From Pedococcus dokdonensis (GTDB lineage Bacteria > Actinomycetota > Actinomycetes > Actinomycetales > Dermatophilaceae), in the NCBI RefSeq assembly GCF_900104525.1, contig NZ_LT629711.1, positions 930,001-994,000 of the forward strand: 64,000 bases of DNA, written 5' to 3'. The position numbers and the translations under genes are program-made. The notes under the pieces were generated by a model that saw only the letters and a program-made list of their open reading frames with translations, was not told the DNA's origin and ran no database searches. Position 1 is the first letter of the stretch. Every line of letters begins with the position of its first letter. Below are positions 713-63,468 of this stretch, one piece after another.

Positions 713-2629
713 TCAGACCGGCGGGGTGAGCAGCTCGGTGCCGAGCCAGGCCTTCGGGATGCCGAACGCGTCCACCAGCTCCTGGGCATGCGGGCGCAGG
801 GCGGCGCACAGGTCGTTGACCGCGGCGGTCACCTGCTTCGACCTGGCCGGGGTGATCCGGCCGTGCTCGAGGAACCAGCCCTTGTCGGCCTCGATGCTGC
901 TCAGCGCGTAGAGGTCGCAGACTCGCGAGAGGGTCTGTGCCGCAGCAGGATCCGCGCACGCGTCGATCGCGGCCACGAACGACTCGAGGATCGTGCGGTC
1001 CACGTGGGCGCGGGCCGCCTCGATGACGTGGTCCTGCGCGTCGTTGAACACGGCGAAGGCATCCGCGTCCGGCTTGGCGGCCCTGCGCAGCCGCAGCGCC
1101 AGGGTCTCGACGAGGTGCTTCTCGCGGTCCTCGAAGAGGTCGAGCTGCCAGCCGCGGTCGGTCGGGCCCTTCTCGCTGTCGCGTCCGGGAGCCGAGTCGA
1201 TCAGGCGCTGGATGAGGCCGCGCGCCGAGGTCCGCTCGATCACCGCCCCGGCGAACTGCCGTGCCCCGAACCGCACCATCCCCAGCGTGTCGAGGTCACC
1301 GAACGCGTCTCGGTAGTCGGTGAGCAGCCCCTTCGCCACGAGCTGCAGCAGCACCGTGTTGTCGCCCTCGAACGTGGTGAACACGTCGCTGTCGGCCTTG
1401 AGCTGGGGCAGCCGGTTGACGGCCAGGTAGCCGGCTCCACCACACGCTTCGCGGCACATCTGGATCGTCGCGGTCGCGTGCGCGGTCGCGACGGCCTTGG
1501 TGCCGGCCGCGCGGGCCTCGAGCTCGCGCTGCTGGTGCTCGTCGGCGGCGTCGCCGGCCGACTGCACGTCGTGCATGAGCGAGACCAGCTCGTTCTGGGC
1601 GAACTGCAACGCATACGACTTCGCTAGCGCGGGCAGCAGCTTGCGCTGGTGCACCCGGTAGTCGAGCAGGATCACCTCGTCGGTGCCACCGGGCGGCGCG
1701 AACTGGCGCCGGTGCCCGGCATACGTCACCGCGAGGGTGAGCGCCGTGCGAGTGGCCGCGCCCGCCCCGCCCGCCACGCTGATCCGCCCGCGCACCAAGG
1801 TCCCGAGCATGGTGAAGAAGCGGCGCGTCGGGTTGTCGATGGGGGAGGAGTAGGTGCCCTGCTCGTCGATGTCGCCGTAGCGGTTGAGCAGGTTGGTGCG
1901 CGGCACCCGCACGTGGTCGAAGGTCAGGCGGCCGTTGTCCACGCCCGGCAGCCCGGCCTTGGCGCCGCAGTCCCCGATCGTGACGCCGGGCATGGCGTTC
2001 CCGGCCTCGTCGCGGATCGGCACGAGCACGCAGTGCACGCCGTGGCTCTCGTCGCCGGTGACCAGCTGCGCGAAGACCGCGGCCATCCGTCCGTCGCGCG
2101 CCGCTCCGCCGATGTAGTCCTTGCGCGAGCGCAGGTCAGGAGTGTTGACGACGAGCTCGTCCGTGTCCGGGTCGTACGTCGCCGTCGTGCCGAGCGACTG
2201 CACGTCGGAGCCGTGCCCGGTCTCGGTCATCGCGAAGCAGCCCGGCAGGCTCGCGTCGATGATCGACGGCAGGTATGCGGTGTGGTGCCGCTCGGTGCCG
2301 AGGTTCGCCACCGCGCCACCGAACAGACCCCAGTGCACCCCGGCCTTGACCATCAGCGACAGGTCGGCATGGCCGAGCAGCTCGAACGCGGTGACCGAGC
2401 CGCCGAGGTCGCCATTGCCGCCGATCGCCTTCGGAAAGCCACGCTTGGCGTGACCCGTCGCAGCCAGCGCCTGCACCTGGTCGGCGATGCGGGCGCGGTA
2501 GGACTCGAGGTCGAGCGGCTCGGTCGGTGGGGCGAACCGCTCGGGGTCGAGGTCGGTGCGGGCCTCGTCCCGGATCGCGGCCCAGCGCCCGTCGAGGGTG
2601 TGCTGGAGTGCGGTGGCGAGGGTCGTCAT
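713..2629 (-). CDS. Acyl-CoA oxidase / dehydrogenase family protein
   Basis: 638 residues from ATG at 2629, preceded by an AGGAGG-type ribosome site. Flavoprotein that introduces the 2,3 double bond in acyl-CoA, first step of beta-oxidation. The middle domain has TETGHGS (135-141) and VLVPIRDE followed by PGVTIGDCG, which is the pattern of acyl-CoA oxidases rather than of the 380-residue dehydrogenases; the C-terminal catalytic half has EACGGAGY (394-401) and FEGDN (420-424), where Glu421 would be the catalytic base. Length also fits the oxidase group. Whether electrons go to oxygen or to an ETF cannot be told from sequence. It lies beside a TetR gene on the same strand and divergent from thiolase, FabG4-type and MaoC genes, which supports a role in fatty acid breakdown. 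Confidence 0.85.
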   Translation of the reverse strand: MTTLATALQHTLDGRWAAIRDEARTDLDPERFAPPTEPLDLESYRARIADQVQALAATGHAKRGFPKAIGGNGDLGGSVTAFELLGHADLSLMVKAGVHWGLFGGAVANLGTERHHTAYLPSIIDASLPGCFAMTETGHGSDVQSLGTTATYDPDTDELVVNTPDLRSRKDYIGGAARDGRMAAVFAQLVTGDESHGVHCVLVPIRDEAGNAMPGVTIGDCGAKAGLPGVDNGRLTFDHVRVPRTNLLNRYGDIDEQGTYSSPIDNPTRRFFTMLGTLVRGRISVAGGAGAATRTALTLAVTYAGHRRQFAPPGGTDEVILLDYRVHQRKLLPALAKSYALQFAQNELVSLMHDVQSAGDAADEHQQRELEARAAGTKAVATAHATATIQMCREACGGAGYLAVNRLPQLKADSDVFTTFEGDNTVLLQLVAKGLLTDYRDAFGDLDTLGMVRFGARQFAGAVIERTSARGLIQRLIDSAPGRDSEKGPTDRGWQLDLFEDREKHLVETLALRLRRAAKPDADAFAVFNDAQDHVIEAARAHVDRTILESFVAAIDACADPAAAQTLSRVCDLYALSSIEADKGWFLEHGRITPARSKQVTAAVNDLCAALRPHAQELVDAFGIPKAWLGTELLTPPV

Positions 2630-2697
2630 GGGTCCTCCTGCGTCAGGGGGGTGGTCAGGGATGGTCGGGGGTGGTCGGGGAAGAACGGGGCGCGCCG

Positions 2698-60530: not shown

Positions 60531-60585
60531 GGCGCGGCGTGACAGATGGGGAGGCGATCCGAGCAATCCGACGTTCAGGAGCCTC

Positions 60586-63468
60586 ATGTCCGCCCAGCCC
60601 GCCACCGACCTGCCCGAGTTCGCCGGGCGCCACATCGGTCCGTCCGAGTCCGACGTCGAGGCCATGCTGTCGACCGTCCGGCACGCCTCGCTGGACGCCC
60701 TCGTCGACCACGCGCTTCCCGGAGCCATCCGCACCGACGGCCCACTGCGGGTGGAGCCGGCCGCCTCCGAGGCGGCCGTGGTGGAGGAGCTGCGGGGGAT
60801 CGCGCGCCGCAACCAGGTGATGACGTCCATGATCGGGCTCGGCTACTACGGGACCCTCACCCCGGCCGTGATCCAGCGCAACGTGCTGGAGAACCCCGCG
60901 TGGTACACCGCCTACACGCCCTACCAGCCCGAGATCTCGCAGGGCCGGCTCGAGGCGCTGCTGAACTTCCAGACCGTCGTCAGCGACCTCACCGGGCTGA
61001 CCACCTCCGGCGCGTCGTTGCTCGACGAGGCCACGGCCGCGGCCGAGGCGATGACCCTCATGCGCCGCTCCAGCAAGGCCGCGGCCGACGCCGTGCTGCT
61101 GGTCGACCAGCACGTCTTCCCGCAGACCCTCGCGGTCATGCAGACCCGGGCCAAGCCGCTGGGGCTGCCGGTGGTCGTGGCGGACCTGGCCGGGGTGGAG
61201 TCCGCCGACGACCTGCGGACCGCCGCCGGTGACCGCGCCGTCTTCGGCGTCCTGGTGCAGTACCCCGGAGCCGATGGCGAGCTGCGTGACTGGCGCGCCC
61301 TGGCGTCGGCGGCCCACGAGGCCGGCGCGCTGGTGACCGCCGCTGCCGACCTGCTCGCGCTGACCCTGGCCGCCGCGCCGGGGGAGTGGGGCGCGGACGT
61401 CGCGGTCGGCACCAGCCAGCGGTTCGGTGTGCCGATGGGCTTCGGTGGCCCGCACGCCGGCTACATGAGCGTGCGCCCCGGCCTCGAGCGCTCCCTGCCG
61501 GGGCGACTCGTCGGCGTGAGCGTCGACACCGAGGGCGCCCCCGCCTACCGGCTCGCACTCCAGACCCGCGAGCAGCACATCCGTCGTGAGAAGGCGACCT
61601 CCAACATCTGCACCGCCCAGGTGCTCCTCGCCGTGATGGCGTCGATGTATGCCGTCTACCACGGCCCCGTAGGCCTCGCCGCGATCGCCCGCCGAGTGCA
61701 CGGCCACGCGGCGACGCTGGTCGAGGGCCTCACGGCGGCGGGCGTCGACGTGCAGACGTCGGTGTACTTCGACACGGTCACCGTGGCGGTGCCCGGACGC
61801 GCCGACGAGGTGGTCAGCGAGGCCGCCCAGCGCGGCGTGAACCTCTGGCGCGTCGATGGCGACCGGGTTTCCATCAGCGTCGACGAGACGACCGACCTGC
61901 GCGACCTCGAGGCGGTCTGGAGCGCCTTCGGCGCGACCGGGCGGCAGGAGGTCTCCATCGGCGAGCTGCAGTGGCCGACCGAGCTGGTCCGCACCAGCGA
62001 CTACCTCACCCACCCGGTGTTCAGCAGCCACCACAGTGAGACGTCGATGCTGCGCTACCTGCGCCGGCTGTCCGACCGTGACTTCGCGCTCGACCGCGGC
62101 ATGATCCCGCTGGGCTCGTGCACCATGAAGCTCAACGCCACGACCGAGATGGTCGCGGTGACCTGGCCGGAGTTCGCCCACCTGCACCCGTTCGCCCCGG
62201 CCCACCAGACCGAGGGCATCCGCGACCTCATCGGCGAGCTGTCGGCCTGGCTGTGTGAGATCACCGGCTACGACGCGGTGTCGCTCCAGCCGAACGCCGG
62301 CTCGCAGGGAGAGTTCGCCGGCCTGCTCGCGATCCACGCCTACCACGAGGCGAACGGGCAGTCGCAGCGCAACATCTGCCTGATCCCGGCCAGCGCGCAC
62401 GGCACCAACGCCGCGTCCGCGGTGATGGCCGGCATGAAGGTCGTCGTGGTCAAGACCGCGGCCGGCGGCGACGTGGACATGGACGACCTGCGCGCGAAGG
62501 TCGACCAGCACCGTGACGACCTCGCGGCGATCATGGTCACCTACCCCTCGACGCACGGCGTCTTCGAGGACACCATCACCGAGCTATGCGCGCTGGTCCA
62601 CGACGCCGGTGGTCAGGTCTACGTCGACGGCGCCAACCTGAACGCCCTGGTGGGGCTGGCCAGGCCCGGCAAGTTCGGTGCCGACGTGTCGCACCTCAAC
62701 CTGCACAAGACCTTCTGCATCCCGCACGGTGGTGGTGGGCCCGGTGTCGGCCCGGTCGCGGTGCGTTCGCACCTGGCCCCGCACCTGCCCAACCACCCGC
62801 TCGCCGCGGAAGCCGGGCCCGAAGGTGGGGTCGGCCCGATCTCGGCGGCCCCCTACGGCTCGGCCAGCATCCTGCCGATCTCGTGGGCCTACGTGCGGCT
62901 CATGGGTGGCGCCGGTCTGACCCGGGCCACCCAGGTCGCGGTCCTCTCGGCCAACTACATCGCGGCTCGGCTTCGCGAGCACTACCCGGTGCTCTACTCG
63001 GGGCACGACGGGGTGGTCGCCCACGAGTGCATCCTCGACCTGCGTGAGCTGACCCGGCGCAGCGGCGTCACCGTCGACGACGTCGCCAAGCGGCTCATCG
63101 ACTATGGCTTCCACGCGCCCACGATGTCGTTCCCCGTGGCCGGGACGCTCATGGTCGAGCCGACCGAGAGCGAGGACCGCCATGAGCTCGACCGGTTCTG
63201 CGACGCGATGATCGCGATCCGCCGGGAGATCGCCGAGGTCGAGTCCGGTGATGTCGCGGTCGCGGACAGCATGCTGCGCAACGCCCCGCACACGGCGAAG
63301 GCCCTGGCCGGCAAGTGGGAGTACCCCTACGACCGCTCGGCCGCCGCGTTCCCCGTCGGGGTCGACGCCGCCGACAAGTACTGGCCCCCGGTGGGTCGGA
63401 TCGACGGCGCGTACGGCGACCGCAACCTGGTCTGCAGCTGCCCGCCGCCGGAGGCGTTCGAGGGCTGA
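60586..63468 (+). CDS. gcvP: Glycine dehydrogenase (decarboxylating), P protein
   Basis: 960 residues from ATG 60586 with AGGAG upstream. Fused alpha and beta halves in one chain, PLP bound to about Lys708 in [27 protein letters not shown] and GHIGP-like [15 protein letters not shown] are family marks. It decarboxylates glycine and loads the methylamine onto the H protein. Controlled by the riboswitch in its leader. gcvH is near, the T protein gene is elsewhere. Confidence 0.97.

What the first reader, a model, noticed from the sequence alone, without database searches (positions are those of the whole stretch)
1717..61654. Octamer CGGCATAC/GTATGCCG strongly over-represented on both strands
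Reading by eye I count about 43 copies: as CGGCATAC at 1717, 3153, 5307, 11291, 12156, 13295, 15793, five in the array (17241 to 17573), 18817, 23620, 27160, 36669, 38481, 42437, 49646, 51170, 52821, 57649; as GTATGCCG at 4867, 8985, 14925, 18980, 20603, 23450, 27250, 29434, 32960, 36926, 40130, 42898, 45522, 47106, 47355, 51193, 52094, 53968, 55228, 58561, 61647. A base-composition estimate for about 70% GC predicts roughly two. Nearly every GGCATAC or GTATGCC is extended by the same C/G, so the unit is at least eight bases. About a dozen copies are non-coding although such DNA is a few percent of the window, so codon choice alone does not explain it; in genes it forces rare codons (TAT, GCA). 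Orientation is balanced, against a KOPS or Chi role and more like a DNA-uptake signal or a protein-binding genome signature.
Basis: partly seen in the sequence, partly recalled or inferred. Interest (0 to 1): 0.85.

Follow-up and report, generated by a model that had tools for sequence, protein, structure and literature searches.

The report
Possible DNA-uptake signal in Knoellia
A bacterium of the genus Knoellia and many of its relatives have one exact eight-letter word written hundreds to thousands of times across their chromosomes, most likely a 'self' tag for taking up DNA from their own kind, something we found no report of in Gram-positive bacteria.

Summary
The window holds 43 copies of CGGCATAC (22 on +, 21 on -); dinucleotide shuffles give 0.73. 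The genome (genus Knoellia) holds 954 + 973 copies against 29 + 28 of the reversed control. At least 100 copies per Mb occur in 52 of 89 genomes of the family and in none of 58 sampled from the rest of the order.

It is an eight-base signature with dialects: AGCGGCATAC in one genus, CGNCATAC in others. Almost every synonymous chance to write it in one codon context is taken: 101 of 112 in this genome, 3 of 46 in motif-negative relatives. It lies in and between genes, shows no strand bias for any origin, is conserved at orthologous sites, is four-fold depleted around conjugative relaxase genes, and sometimes forms inverted pairs. These traits recall Neisseria-type DNA uptake sequences.

comEA, comEC and a competence-type Tad cluster are present, but also in motif-negative relatives; no receptor gene was found. 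Best reading: an uptake ('self') signal, confidence 0.65. A methylation- or repair-made signature like HIP1 is the main rival.

The parts
1717..1724 (+). CGGCATAC copy, in CDS
3153..3160 (+). CGGCATAC copy, in CDS
4867..4874 (-). CGGCATAC copy, in CDS
5307..5314 (+). CGGCATAC copy, in CDS
8985..8992 (-). CGGCATAC copy, intergenic
11291..11298 (+). CGGCATAC copy, in CDS
12156..12163 (+). CGGCATAC copy, in CDS
13295..13302 (+). CGGCATAC copy, gene edge
14925..14932 (-). CGGCATAC copy, in CDS
15793..15800 (+). CGGCATAC copy, in CDS
17192..17597 (.). intergenic tandem array, 83-bp unit (ends approximate), one motif per unit
   Evidence: sequence; copies 83 bp apart
17241..17248 (+). CGGCATAC copy, tandem array
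17324..17331 (+). CGGCATAC copy, tandem array
17407..17414 (+). CGGCATAC copy, tandem array
17490..17497 (+). CGGCATAC copy, tandem array
17573..17580 (+). CGGCATAC copy, tandem array
18817..18824 (+). CGGCATAC copy, in CDS
18980..18987 (-). CGGCATAC copy, in CDS
20603..20610 (-). CGGCATAC copy, in CDS
23450..23457 (-). CGGCATAC copy, in CDS
23620..23627 (+). CGGCATAC copy, in CDS
27160..27167 (+). CGGCATAC copy, intergenic
27250..27257 (-). CGGCATAC copy, intergenic
29434..29441 (-). CGGCATAC copy, in CDS
32960..32967 (-). CGGCATAC copy, in CDS (RelA/SpoT family gene)
36669..36676 (+). CGGCATAC copy, in CDS
36926..36933 (-). CGGCATAC copy, in CDS
38481..38488 (+). CGGCATAC copy, in CDS
40130..40137 (-). 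CGGCATAC copy, in CDS (hisS)
42437..42444 (+). CGGCATAC copy, in CDS
42897..42904 (-). CGGCATAC copy, in CDS (reader wrote 42898)
45522..45529 (-). CGGCATAC copy, in CDS
47106..47113 (-). CGGCATAC copy, in CDS
47355..47362 (-). CGGCATAC copy, in CDS
49646..49653 (+). CGGCATAC copy, intergenic
51170..51177 (+). CGGCATAC copy, intergenic; first arm of an inverted pair
51193..51200 (-). CGGCATAC copy, intergenic; second arm of the inverted pair, between convergent called genes
52094..52101 (-). CGGCATAC copy, in CDS
52821..52828 (+). CGGCATAC copy, intergenic
53968..53975 (-). CGGCATAC copy, in CDS
55228..55235 (-). CGGCATAC copy, in CDS
57649..57656 (+). CGGCATAC copy, in CDS
58561..58568 (-). 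CGGCATAC copy, in CDS
61647..61654 (-). CGGCATAC copy, in CDS (gcvP)

Best explanation
CGGCATAC is most likely a DNA uptake sequence: a short, non-palindromic self-tag that a surface DNA receptor of the natural-transformation machinery recognises. That machinery would be a Tad-type competence pilus, then ComEA, then ComEC. DNA from the same clade carries the tag about every 1-2 kb in high-count genomes, is taken up preferentially and recombines into the chromosome. Fragments that carry the tag therefore spread and restore it, while conjugative elements that arrive by another route lack it. Shown here: the word, its genome-wide and family-restricted enrichment, dialects, conservation, near-saturation of one synonymous context, avoidance of relaxase loci, inverted pairs, and the presence of comEA, comEC and tad genes. 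Inferred: that a receptor reads it, that uptake is biased, and that recombination drives it.
For: Genome-wide 1,927 against 57 for the reversed control; 52 of 89 family genomes carry at least 100 per Mb, range 156 to 1,125. Dialects: in G025 37 copies in 120 kb, all with AG before the word and 89% with G after it; CGNCATAC in several others. Codon choice at xxG-Tyr-GCC-G: TAT 101 of 112 in G000, 62 of 68 in other high-count Knoellia, 138 of 148 in other positive genera (where TAT elsewhere is 359 of 1,922), 3 of 46 in motif-negative genomes. The states of aligned and synonymous sites fit several mutational routes (TAC to TAT, GCC to GCA, GCG to GCA). Aligned copies are conserved in 164 of 239 ordered comparisons against 91.8 expected for composition-matched words. 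No strand bias for any possible origin. 21 copies at 30 TrwC-relaxase loci (of 41 matches; the 30 for which loci were given) against 82.2 expected, while the 14 comEC loci from positive genomes (of 30 given) had 21 against 23.8. The two coldest of 20 own stretches carry a TrwC relaxase gene or conjugative type IV secretion genes. (-,+) inverted pairs 20-29 bp apart: 12 found against about 1.6 expected (spacing bin chosen). comEA/comEC and a Tad cluster with a TadE minor pilin are present. Dialects, conservation, rarity in acquired DNA and inverted pairs are reported for neisserial DUS (PMC2397512, PMC3630211, PMC7371117; passages read).
Against: No receptor was found. In the Tad neighbourhood (10 positive, 10 negative genomes) and the comEC neighbourhood (12 and 11) no gene was present in all or nearly all positives and absent from negatives; four gene clusters at the comEC locus were seen in positives only, but in just 3-4 of 12. 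ComEC, ComEA and the helicase-linked TadA also occur in motif-negative genomes. Eight enriched genomes lack a helicase-linked TadA over the cut-off: G001, G006, G007, G014, G040-G043, of which G040-G042 are below 85% complete. A second, Flp-type TadA is associated with the motif (34 of 52 enriched, 7 of 37 not enriched; by genus 19 of 30 and 5 of 23) but is neither necessary nor sufficient. The low-count Knoellia G009 and G010 keep comEA and comEC, and G010's Tad cluster looks intact, so what weakened the signal there is unexplained; in low-count Knoellia the copies are also not denser between genes (0.20 against 0.24 per kb). One near-match, CGGCCTAC, is not scarce in G000 (11.6 per 100 kb against 4.8 in negatives). 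A few relaxase loci are not depleted (L292: 5 against 4.1 expected). No report of transformation in this family appeared in the rows listed.
Confidence: 0.65

Rival explanations
1. A HIP1-like signature: a sequence-specific DNA methyltransferase plus a strand-directed repair system converts near-matches into the motif, so that the motif is a by-product of repair or a methylation mark.
For: HIP1 is also an over-represented 8-mer with alternative forms in relatives, and such a model has been proposed for it (PMC4390886, abstract and passages read). The near-saturation of the G-TAC-GCC-G context as TAT would fit a strong conversion process.
Against: CGGCATAC is not palindromic, unlike HIP1. Transversions seem to be involved as well as transitions (GCA for GCC), and aligned species show seven kinds of single-base alternative plus 52 multi-base ones. 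Avoidance of relaxase loci is expected of any slowly acquired signature, so it does not separate the two.
Confidence: 0.17
2. A binding site of an abundant chromosome-organising, replication or repair protein (Chi-like, KOPS/AIMS-like or nucleoid protein), kept for a role inside the cell.
For: Spread over the genome: 18 of 20 sampled own stretches have 5 to 16 copies; conservation at orthologous sites.
Against: No leading-strand bias for any origin position: the best is 53.9%, and 162 of 200 random assignments do at least as well. Chi and KOPS are strand-biased (recalled). A role inside the cell does not obviously call for dialects, for patchy loss between congeners (G035 519/543, G078 9/10), or for filling 90% of the sites of one codon context.
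Confidence: 0.12
3. A compositional or mutational by-product (codon-pair preference, or a hypermutable CGGCGTAC to CGGCATAC step).
For: CGGCGTAC is scarce where the motif is common (4.5 per 100 kb in G000, 11.2 in negatives, 25 in low-count G010), and A to G at position 5 is the commonest single difference in G006/G010 (25 of 42).
Against: Density is higher between genes than in them in G000 (0.71 against 0.43 per kb, the tandem array included) and in other positive genera (1.45 against 0.78). The motif (47 per 100 kb) exceeds what CGGCGTAC could supply (11.2 in negatives). Other single differences also separate aligned copies.
Confidence: 0.03
4. A dispersed mobile or REP-like repeat of which the octamer is the conserved core.
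For: Five copies in the window sit in an 83-bp tandem array.
Against: Flanks of the other copies look unrelated, and in the 544-kb own-genome sample no flanking column exceeds 71% for one base.
Confidence: 0.01

Closest known systems
DNA uptake sequence (DUS) of Neisseriaceae
   Same: Short non-palindromic word in very many copies, dialects between related taxa, rarity in acquired DNA, conservation, close inverted pairs (PMC3630211, PMC2397512, PMC7371117; passages read).
   Different: Different sequence; Gram-positive Actinomycetota; no PilT-family or N-methyl type IV pilin match in Knoellia at the cut-offs used, so a ComP-like pilin is not expected, though ComP itself was not sought; no uptake experiment.
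Uptake signal sequence (USS) of Pasteurellaceae
   Same: Short uptake word of 9 bp (abstracts seen in the listings).
   Different: Unrelated sequence and taxa; its receptor is called unknown in the abstract of PMC12616744 (listing).
HIP1 of cyanobacteria
   Same: Over-represented octamer with alternative forms in relatives, function unproven (PMC4390886, abstract and passages).
   Different: HIP1 is palindromic and linked to methyltransferases; the motif here is not palindromic and methyltransferases were not tested.
Tad/Flp-dependent competence of Micrococcus luteus
   Same: tad genes and ComEC are required for transformation in an actinobacterium that also has a ComEA orthologue (PMC4322843, passages); the M. 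luteus Flp pilin start printed in PMC6370729 resembles, by eye, the small pilin of the helicase-linked Tad cluster here.
   Different: The passages of those two papers that I read report no uptake sequence for M. luteus. None of 58 genomes from other families of the order, which is recalled to include M. luteus, reaches 100 copies per Mb.

Membership tests
DNA uptake sequence (DUS/USS) | Short exact word far above chance across the genome | tested here: met
   1,927 against 57 reversed control; 43 against 0.73 in the window
DNA uptake sequence (DUS/USS) | Present in both orientations without replication-strand bias | tested here: met
   269 sites over 15.8% of the genome
DNA uptake sequence (DUS/USS) | Rare in horizontally acquired DNA, common in the core genome | tested here: met
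   30 TrwC loci 21 against 82.2; 14 comEC loci 21 against 23.8. Tested for relaxase loci only: a prophage test found no TerL (PF03354) match in 31 genomes
DNA uptake sequence (DUS/USS) | Dialects among related taxa and conservation at orthologous sites | tested here: met
DNA uptake sequence (DUS/USS) | Close inverted pairs that act as terminators at gene ends | tested here: inconclusive
   12 (-,+) pairs 20-29 bp apart against about 1.6 expected, bin chosen after the fact; all opposite pairs up to 40 bp: 6 against 2.3 in G000, 16 against 10.3 elsewhere; 7 of the 12 intergenic; termination not tested
DNA uptake sequence (DUS/USS) | Competence machinery tracks the word | tested here: inconclusive
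   ComEC, ComEA and helicase-linked TadA are widespread with or without the motif; Flp TadA only associated
DNA uptake sequence (DUS/USS) | Dedicated receptor that binds the word | tested here: inconclusive
   no gene tracking the motif in two 20-kb neighbourhoods; rest of the genome not compared
DNA uptake sequence (DUS/USS) | The word raises uptake or transformation | not testable with these tools
   needs an experiment
HIP1-type highly iterated palindrome | Palindromic | tested here: not met
   reverse complement of CGGCATAC is GTATGCCG
HIP1-type highly iterated palindrome | Cognate methyltransferase present where the word is frequent | not tested
Chi / KOPS / AIMS | Strand bias relative to the replication origin (recalled) | tested here: not met
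   best origin gives 53.9% leading, random mean 55.3%
REP or mobile repeat | Conserved sequence beyond the octamer | tested here: not met
   flanks at most 71% one base in G000; the 83-bp array is the exception

The most novel reading that the evidence does not exclude
The first uptake-sequence system outside the known Gram-negative families: a clade-wide, dialect-forming self-tag for natural transformation in Gram-positive Actinomycetota of the Knoellia family. It would be read by a Tad/Flp-type competence pilus rather than by a type IVa pilus with ComP, gained or lost repeatedly among related genera, and visibly decaying in some Knoellia.
Probability: 0.6. Interest if true: 0.92.

Novelty: new variant of a known kind. 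Interest (0 to 1): 0.82.

Why it matters
Self-specific DNA uptake has been described in Neisseriaceae and Pasteurellaceae. I saw no report of it in a Gram-positive phylum in the rows listed by searches (a library of openly licensed papers, capped listings). If the motif is an uptake signal, 52 of the 89 family genomes examined, in about 30 genera, are probably transforming or recently were. They come with ready-made dialect contrasts, congeners that differ in the signal (G035/G078) and partly decayed cases (G006, G009, G010). That would make the old question of whether uptake signals spread by receptor bias plus recombination or by selection directly testable. It could also give a practical way to transform these bacteria, and gaps in the signal would mark foreign DNA.

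Tried and rejected
1. Highest-order Markov models hide the word, because its sub-words are enriched too; lower orders, shuffles and the reversed control show it. With base composition alone (order 0) four other 8-mers, two reverse-complement pairs, score higher in the window.
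2. Type IVa pili as the uptake machine: PilT-family matches (E up to 1e-30) in 30 of 147 genomes and N-methyl pilins in 27 of 147, none in Knoellia.
3. A receptor in the Tad or comEC neighbourhood: no gene tracks the motif (only clusters of at least 3 members were listed).
4. Flp-type TadA as the tracking gene: associated only. The genome list and genus table were coded by hand with E below 1e-160, which drops three family genomes with weaker hits (G033, G047, G056); genus g26, which is mixed, was counted as enriched.
5. Loss of comEC or tad as the cause of low counts in G010 and G009: comEC and comEA read without interruption in both (G009's to residue 791 of 798, where my stretch ends); G010's Tad cluster looks intact; G009's was not read beyond the TadA hit.
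6. A prophage test of depletion: no TerL match in 31 genomes.
7. Tetrasphaera phage TJE1 has 2 copies in 49 kb; its host's motif status was not examined, so nothing is concluded.
8. The contig start is not the origin: ribosomal protein genes lie there (recognised by eye), so strand bias was tested over all possible origins.
9. Literature search on the octamer itself returned 3,142 papers, 20 listed, none of those 20 titles about a genome signature.

Caveats: gene calls come from a simple script; aligned-pair counts are ordered and not independent; family comparisons are not corrected for phylogeny except the genus-level count; expected values for relaxase loci use rounded genome sizes and only about 1.5 kb on either side of the match; only 4 genes of each cold stretch were annotated and the other own stretches were not checked for mobile genes. 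The replichore counts in my notebook (leading 117, lagging 103) assumed that the contig start was the origin and are superseded.

Full report
OBSERVATION. Base composition predicts 2.16 and an order-2 Markov model 0.81; 100 dinucleotide shuffles give a mean of 0.73 and at most 4. Every GGCATAC is preceded by C and every CGGCATA followed by C (43 of 43 each). A simple gene caller puts 30 copies in genes, 12 between genes and 1 on an edge; 5 of the intergenic copies lie in an 83-bp tandem array at about 17.2-17.6 kb.

ORIGIN. The window is bases 930,001-994,000 of a single 3,942,064-base contig. A same-genus genome (G002) has a first contig of 1,694,470 bases, the same length as contig NZ_JABEPQ010000001.1 of Knoellia koreensis, so the genus is taken to be Knoellia. 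Humibacillus xanthopallidus and Janibacter sp. HTCC2649 are matched to family members G048 and G074 in the same way.

GENOME AND PHYLOGENETIC SPREAD. The genome has 954 copies on + and 973 on -, against 29 and 28 of the reversed control word. Of the 147 genomes, 89 are of the family (own included): 52 have at least 100 copies per Mb (156 to 1,125), 7 have 40-100 and 30 have fewer (genome sizes rounded). None of the other 58, from the rest of the order, reaches 100 per Mb; the highest is about 64, equal to its control. In a draw of 396 genomes from the phylum the only three above 100 per Mb are members of this family (G000, G001, G044); no other exceeds about 90 (G415, 79+82 against 12+18), and many are one to three times their control. 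The signal differs even within a genus: G035 519/543, G078 9/10.

SHAPE OF THE SIGNAL. In Knoellia the word is exactly eight bases: in 544 kb of the own genome (two cold stretches and two of their neighbours left out) no flanking column exceeds 71% for one base. In 400 kb of the own genome it is the strongest 8-mer against an order-2 expectation (177 against 6.3); in 464 kb its commonest one-base neighbours have 61 and 54 copies against 220. Other genera use dialects. In G025 all 37 copies in 120 kb are preceded by AG (97% with C before that) and 89% are followed by G. In G013, G014, G079 and Flexivirga the third base is free: G014 has CGGCATAC 43, CGTCATAC 24, CGCCATAC 17 in 80 kb.

NOT CODON CHOICE. 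In genes the word mostly sits as xxG-TAT-GCC-G (Tyr-Ala) or xCG-GCA-TAC (Ala-Tyr). In the first context TAT is used in 101 of 112 cases in G000, against 134 of 2,315 elsewhere. The same holds in other high-count Knoellia (62 of 68) and other positive genera (138 of 148, against 359 of 1,922 elsewhere), but not in motif-negative relatives (3 of 46); in low-count Knoellia it is 31 of 61. In the second context GCA is used 48 of 99 times in G000 and 0 of 52 in negatives. Copies are denser between genes than in them: 0.71 against 0.43 per kb in G000 (41 intergenic copies, 5 of them in the array), 1.45 against 0.78 in other positive genera, but not in low-count Knoellia (0.20 against 0.24).

NOT STRAND-BIASED. 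The contig does not start at the origin. Over every possible origin the best leading-strand share of 269 sites is 53.9%; random assignment gives 55.3% on average, and 162 of 200 do as well or better. This speaks against Chi, KOPS and AIMS.

EVOLUTION. Eight Knoellia genomes were aligned over about 20 kb around relA. Among six of them (G000, G002, G003, G005, G008, Soil729) the word is conserved in 164 of 239 ordered comparisons, against 91.8 expected from other words with three A/T; from these six into the two low-count genomes G006 and G010 it is conserved in 35 of 94 against 35.4 expected. Single-base alternatives among the six are of seven kinds (23 cases, plus 52 with several differences). 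In G006 and G010, 25 of 42 are A to G at position 5, and G010 has an excess of CGGCGTAC (25 per 100 kb against 4.5 in G000). I read this as a word maintained in some lineages, eroding in others, and not made by one mutational step. The comparisons share sites and are not independent, and changes were not polarised on a tree.

AVOIDANCE OF CONJUGATIVE DNA. Of 20 own stretches of 20 kb taken about every 200 kb, two are nearly empty (0 and 1 copies; mean 8.85). One carries a TrwC relaxase gene with two MMPL transporters; the other carries conjugative secretion genes (4 genes of each annotated). At 30 TrwC loci from positive genomes (of 41 matches) there are 21 copies against 82.2 expected at genome density; at the 14 comEC loci from positive genomes 21 against 23.8. 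Some relaxase loci are not depleted, for example L292 with 5 against 4.1. A parallel prophage test failed because no TerL (PF03354) gene was found in 31 genomes.

INVERTED PAIRS. Pairs GTATGCCG...CGGCATAC 20-29 bp apart occur 4 times in G000 and 8 times in other positive genomes, against about 0.3 and 1.3 expected; 7 of the 12 are between genes, and several extend into longer palindromes. The bin was chosen after the first look. All opposite pairs up to 40 bp number 6 against 2.3 expected in G000 and 16 against 10.3 elsewhere. The window has one inverted pair of the other order at 51170-51200, between convergent called genes. Closely spaced inverted DUS pairs that act as terminators are reported in Neisseria (PMC2397512, passage).

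MACHINERY. comEA and comEC lie side by side in the own genome. ComEC is found in 139 of 147 relatives and the HHH_3 domain of ComEA in 139 of 147. A Tad cluster next to a DECH helicase gene has a TadA ATPase and a TadE minor pilin by family search, with genes that look like TadZ, TadB, TadC and a small Flp-like pilin by position and by eye (the pilin had no family match). TadA matches of some kind occur in 146 of 147 genomes and exceed the family's cut-off in 126. By eye, the pilin resembles the M. luteus Flp sequence printed in PMC6370729. In M. luteus tad genes and ComEC are required for transformation (PMC4322843, passages). None of these separates motif-positive from motif-negative genomes. 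In 20-kb neighbourhoods no gene does so either; four clusters seen only in positives are in just 3-4 of 12. A second, Flp-pilus TadA is associated with the motif (34 of 52 enriched genomes, 7 of 37 others; by genus 19 of 30 and 5 of 23) but has exceptions both ways.

VERDICT. The features resemble those reported for DNA uptake sequences. I commit to an uptake signal at 0.65. The missing receptor and the lack of a tracking gene keep a HIP1-like repair or methylation signature (0.17) and an intracellular binding site (0.12) alive. Papers were read as abstracts or passages only (PMC4322843, PMC3630211, PMC7371117, PMC4390886, PMC2397512, PMC6370729); other papers were seen only in search listings. 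That uptake sequences are known only from Neisseriaceae and Pasteurellaceae is largely recalled; my searches, limited to openly licensed papers and capped listings, showed no report of this word or of an actinobacterial uptake sequence in the rows listed.

Noticed in passing
window 17192-17597: Five-copy intergenic tandem array of an 83-bp unit just upstream of pdxS, each unit with one motif copy.
   Followed up: partly
L198 (G078 98001-118000): In the motif-free congener of G035, comEC matches in two overlapping frames, suggesting a frameshift; comEC of G004 is also split over two frames. Could be sequencing error.
   Followed up: no
G010 stretches L062, L179-L183, L262: A low-count Knoellia with about as many CGGCGTAC as CGGCATAC, as if the motif were decaying.
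   Followed up: yes
own-genome sample L039-L058: CGTAGTAG is also over-represented (22 against 1.1 expected in 400 kb); the related word CTACTAC stands out in G014.
   Followed up: no
L239:12898-14874 (-): TadB-like (T2SSF) protein of the Flp-pilus cluster with an added von Willebrand A domain.
   Followed up: no
G415 (same phylum, family f84): CGGCATAC 79+82 against 12+18 reversed in a 1.8-Mb genome, a modest excess far outside the Knoellia family.
   Followed up: no
G006 and G007 (low-count Knoellia): Best helicase-linked TadA E-values (3.1e-100 and 3.7e-100) are no better than that of the Flp-type paralogue in G000 (1.9e-101), suggesting loss of that Tad ATPase.
   Followed up: no
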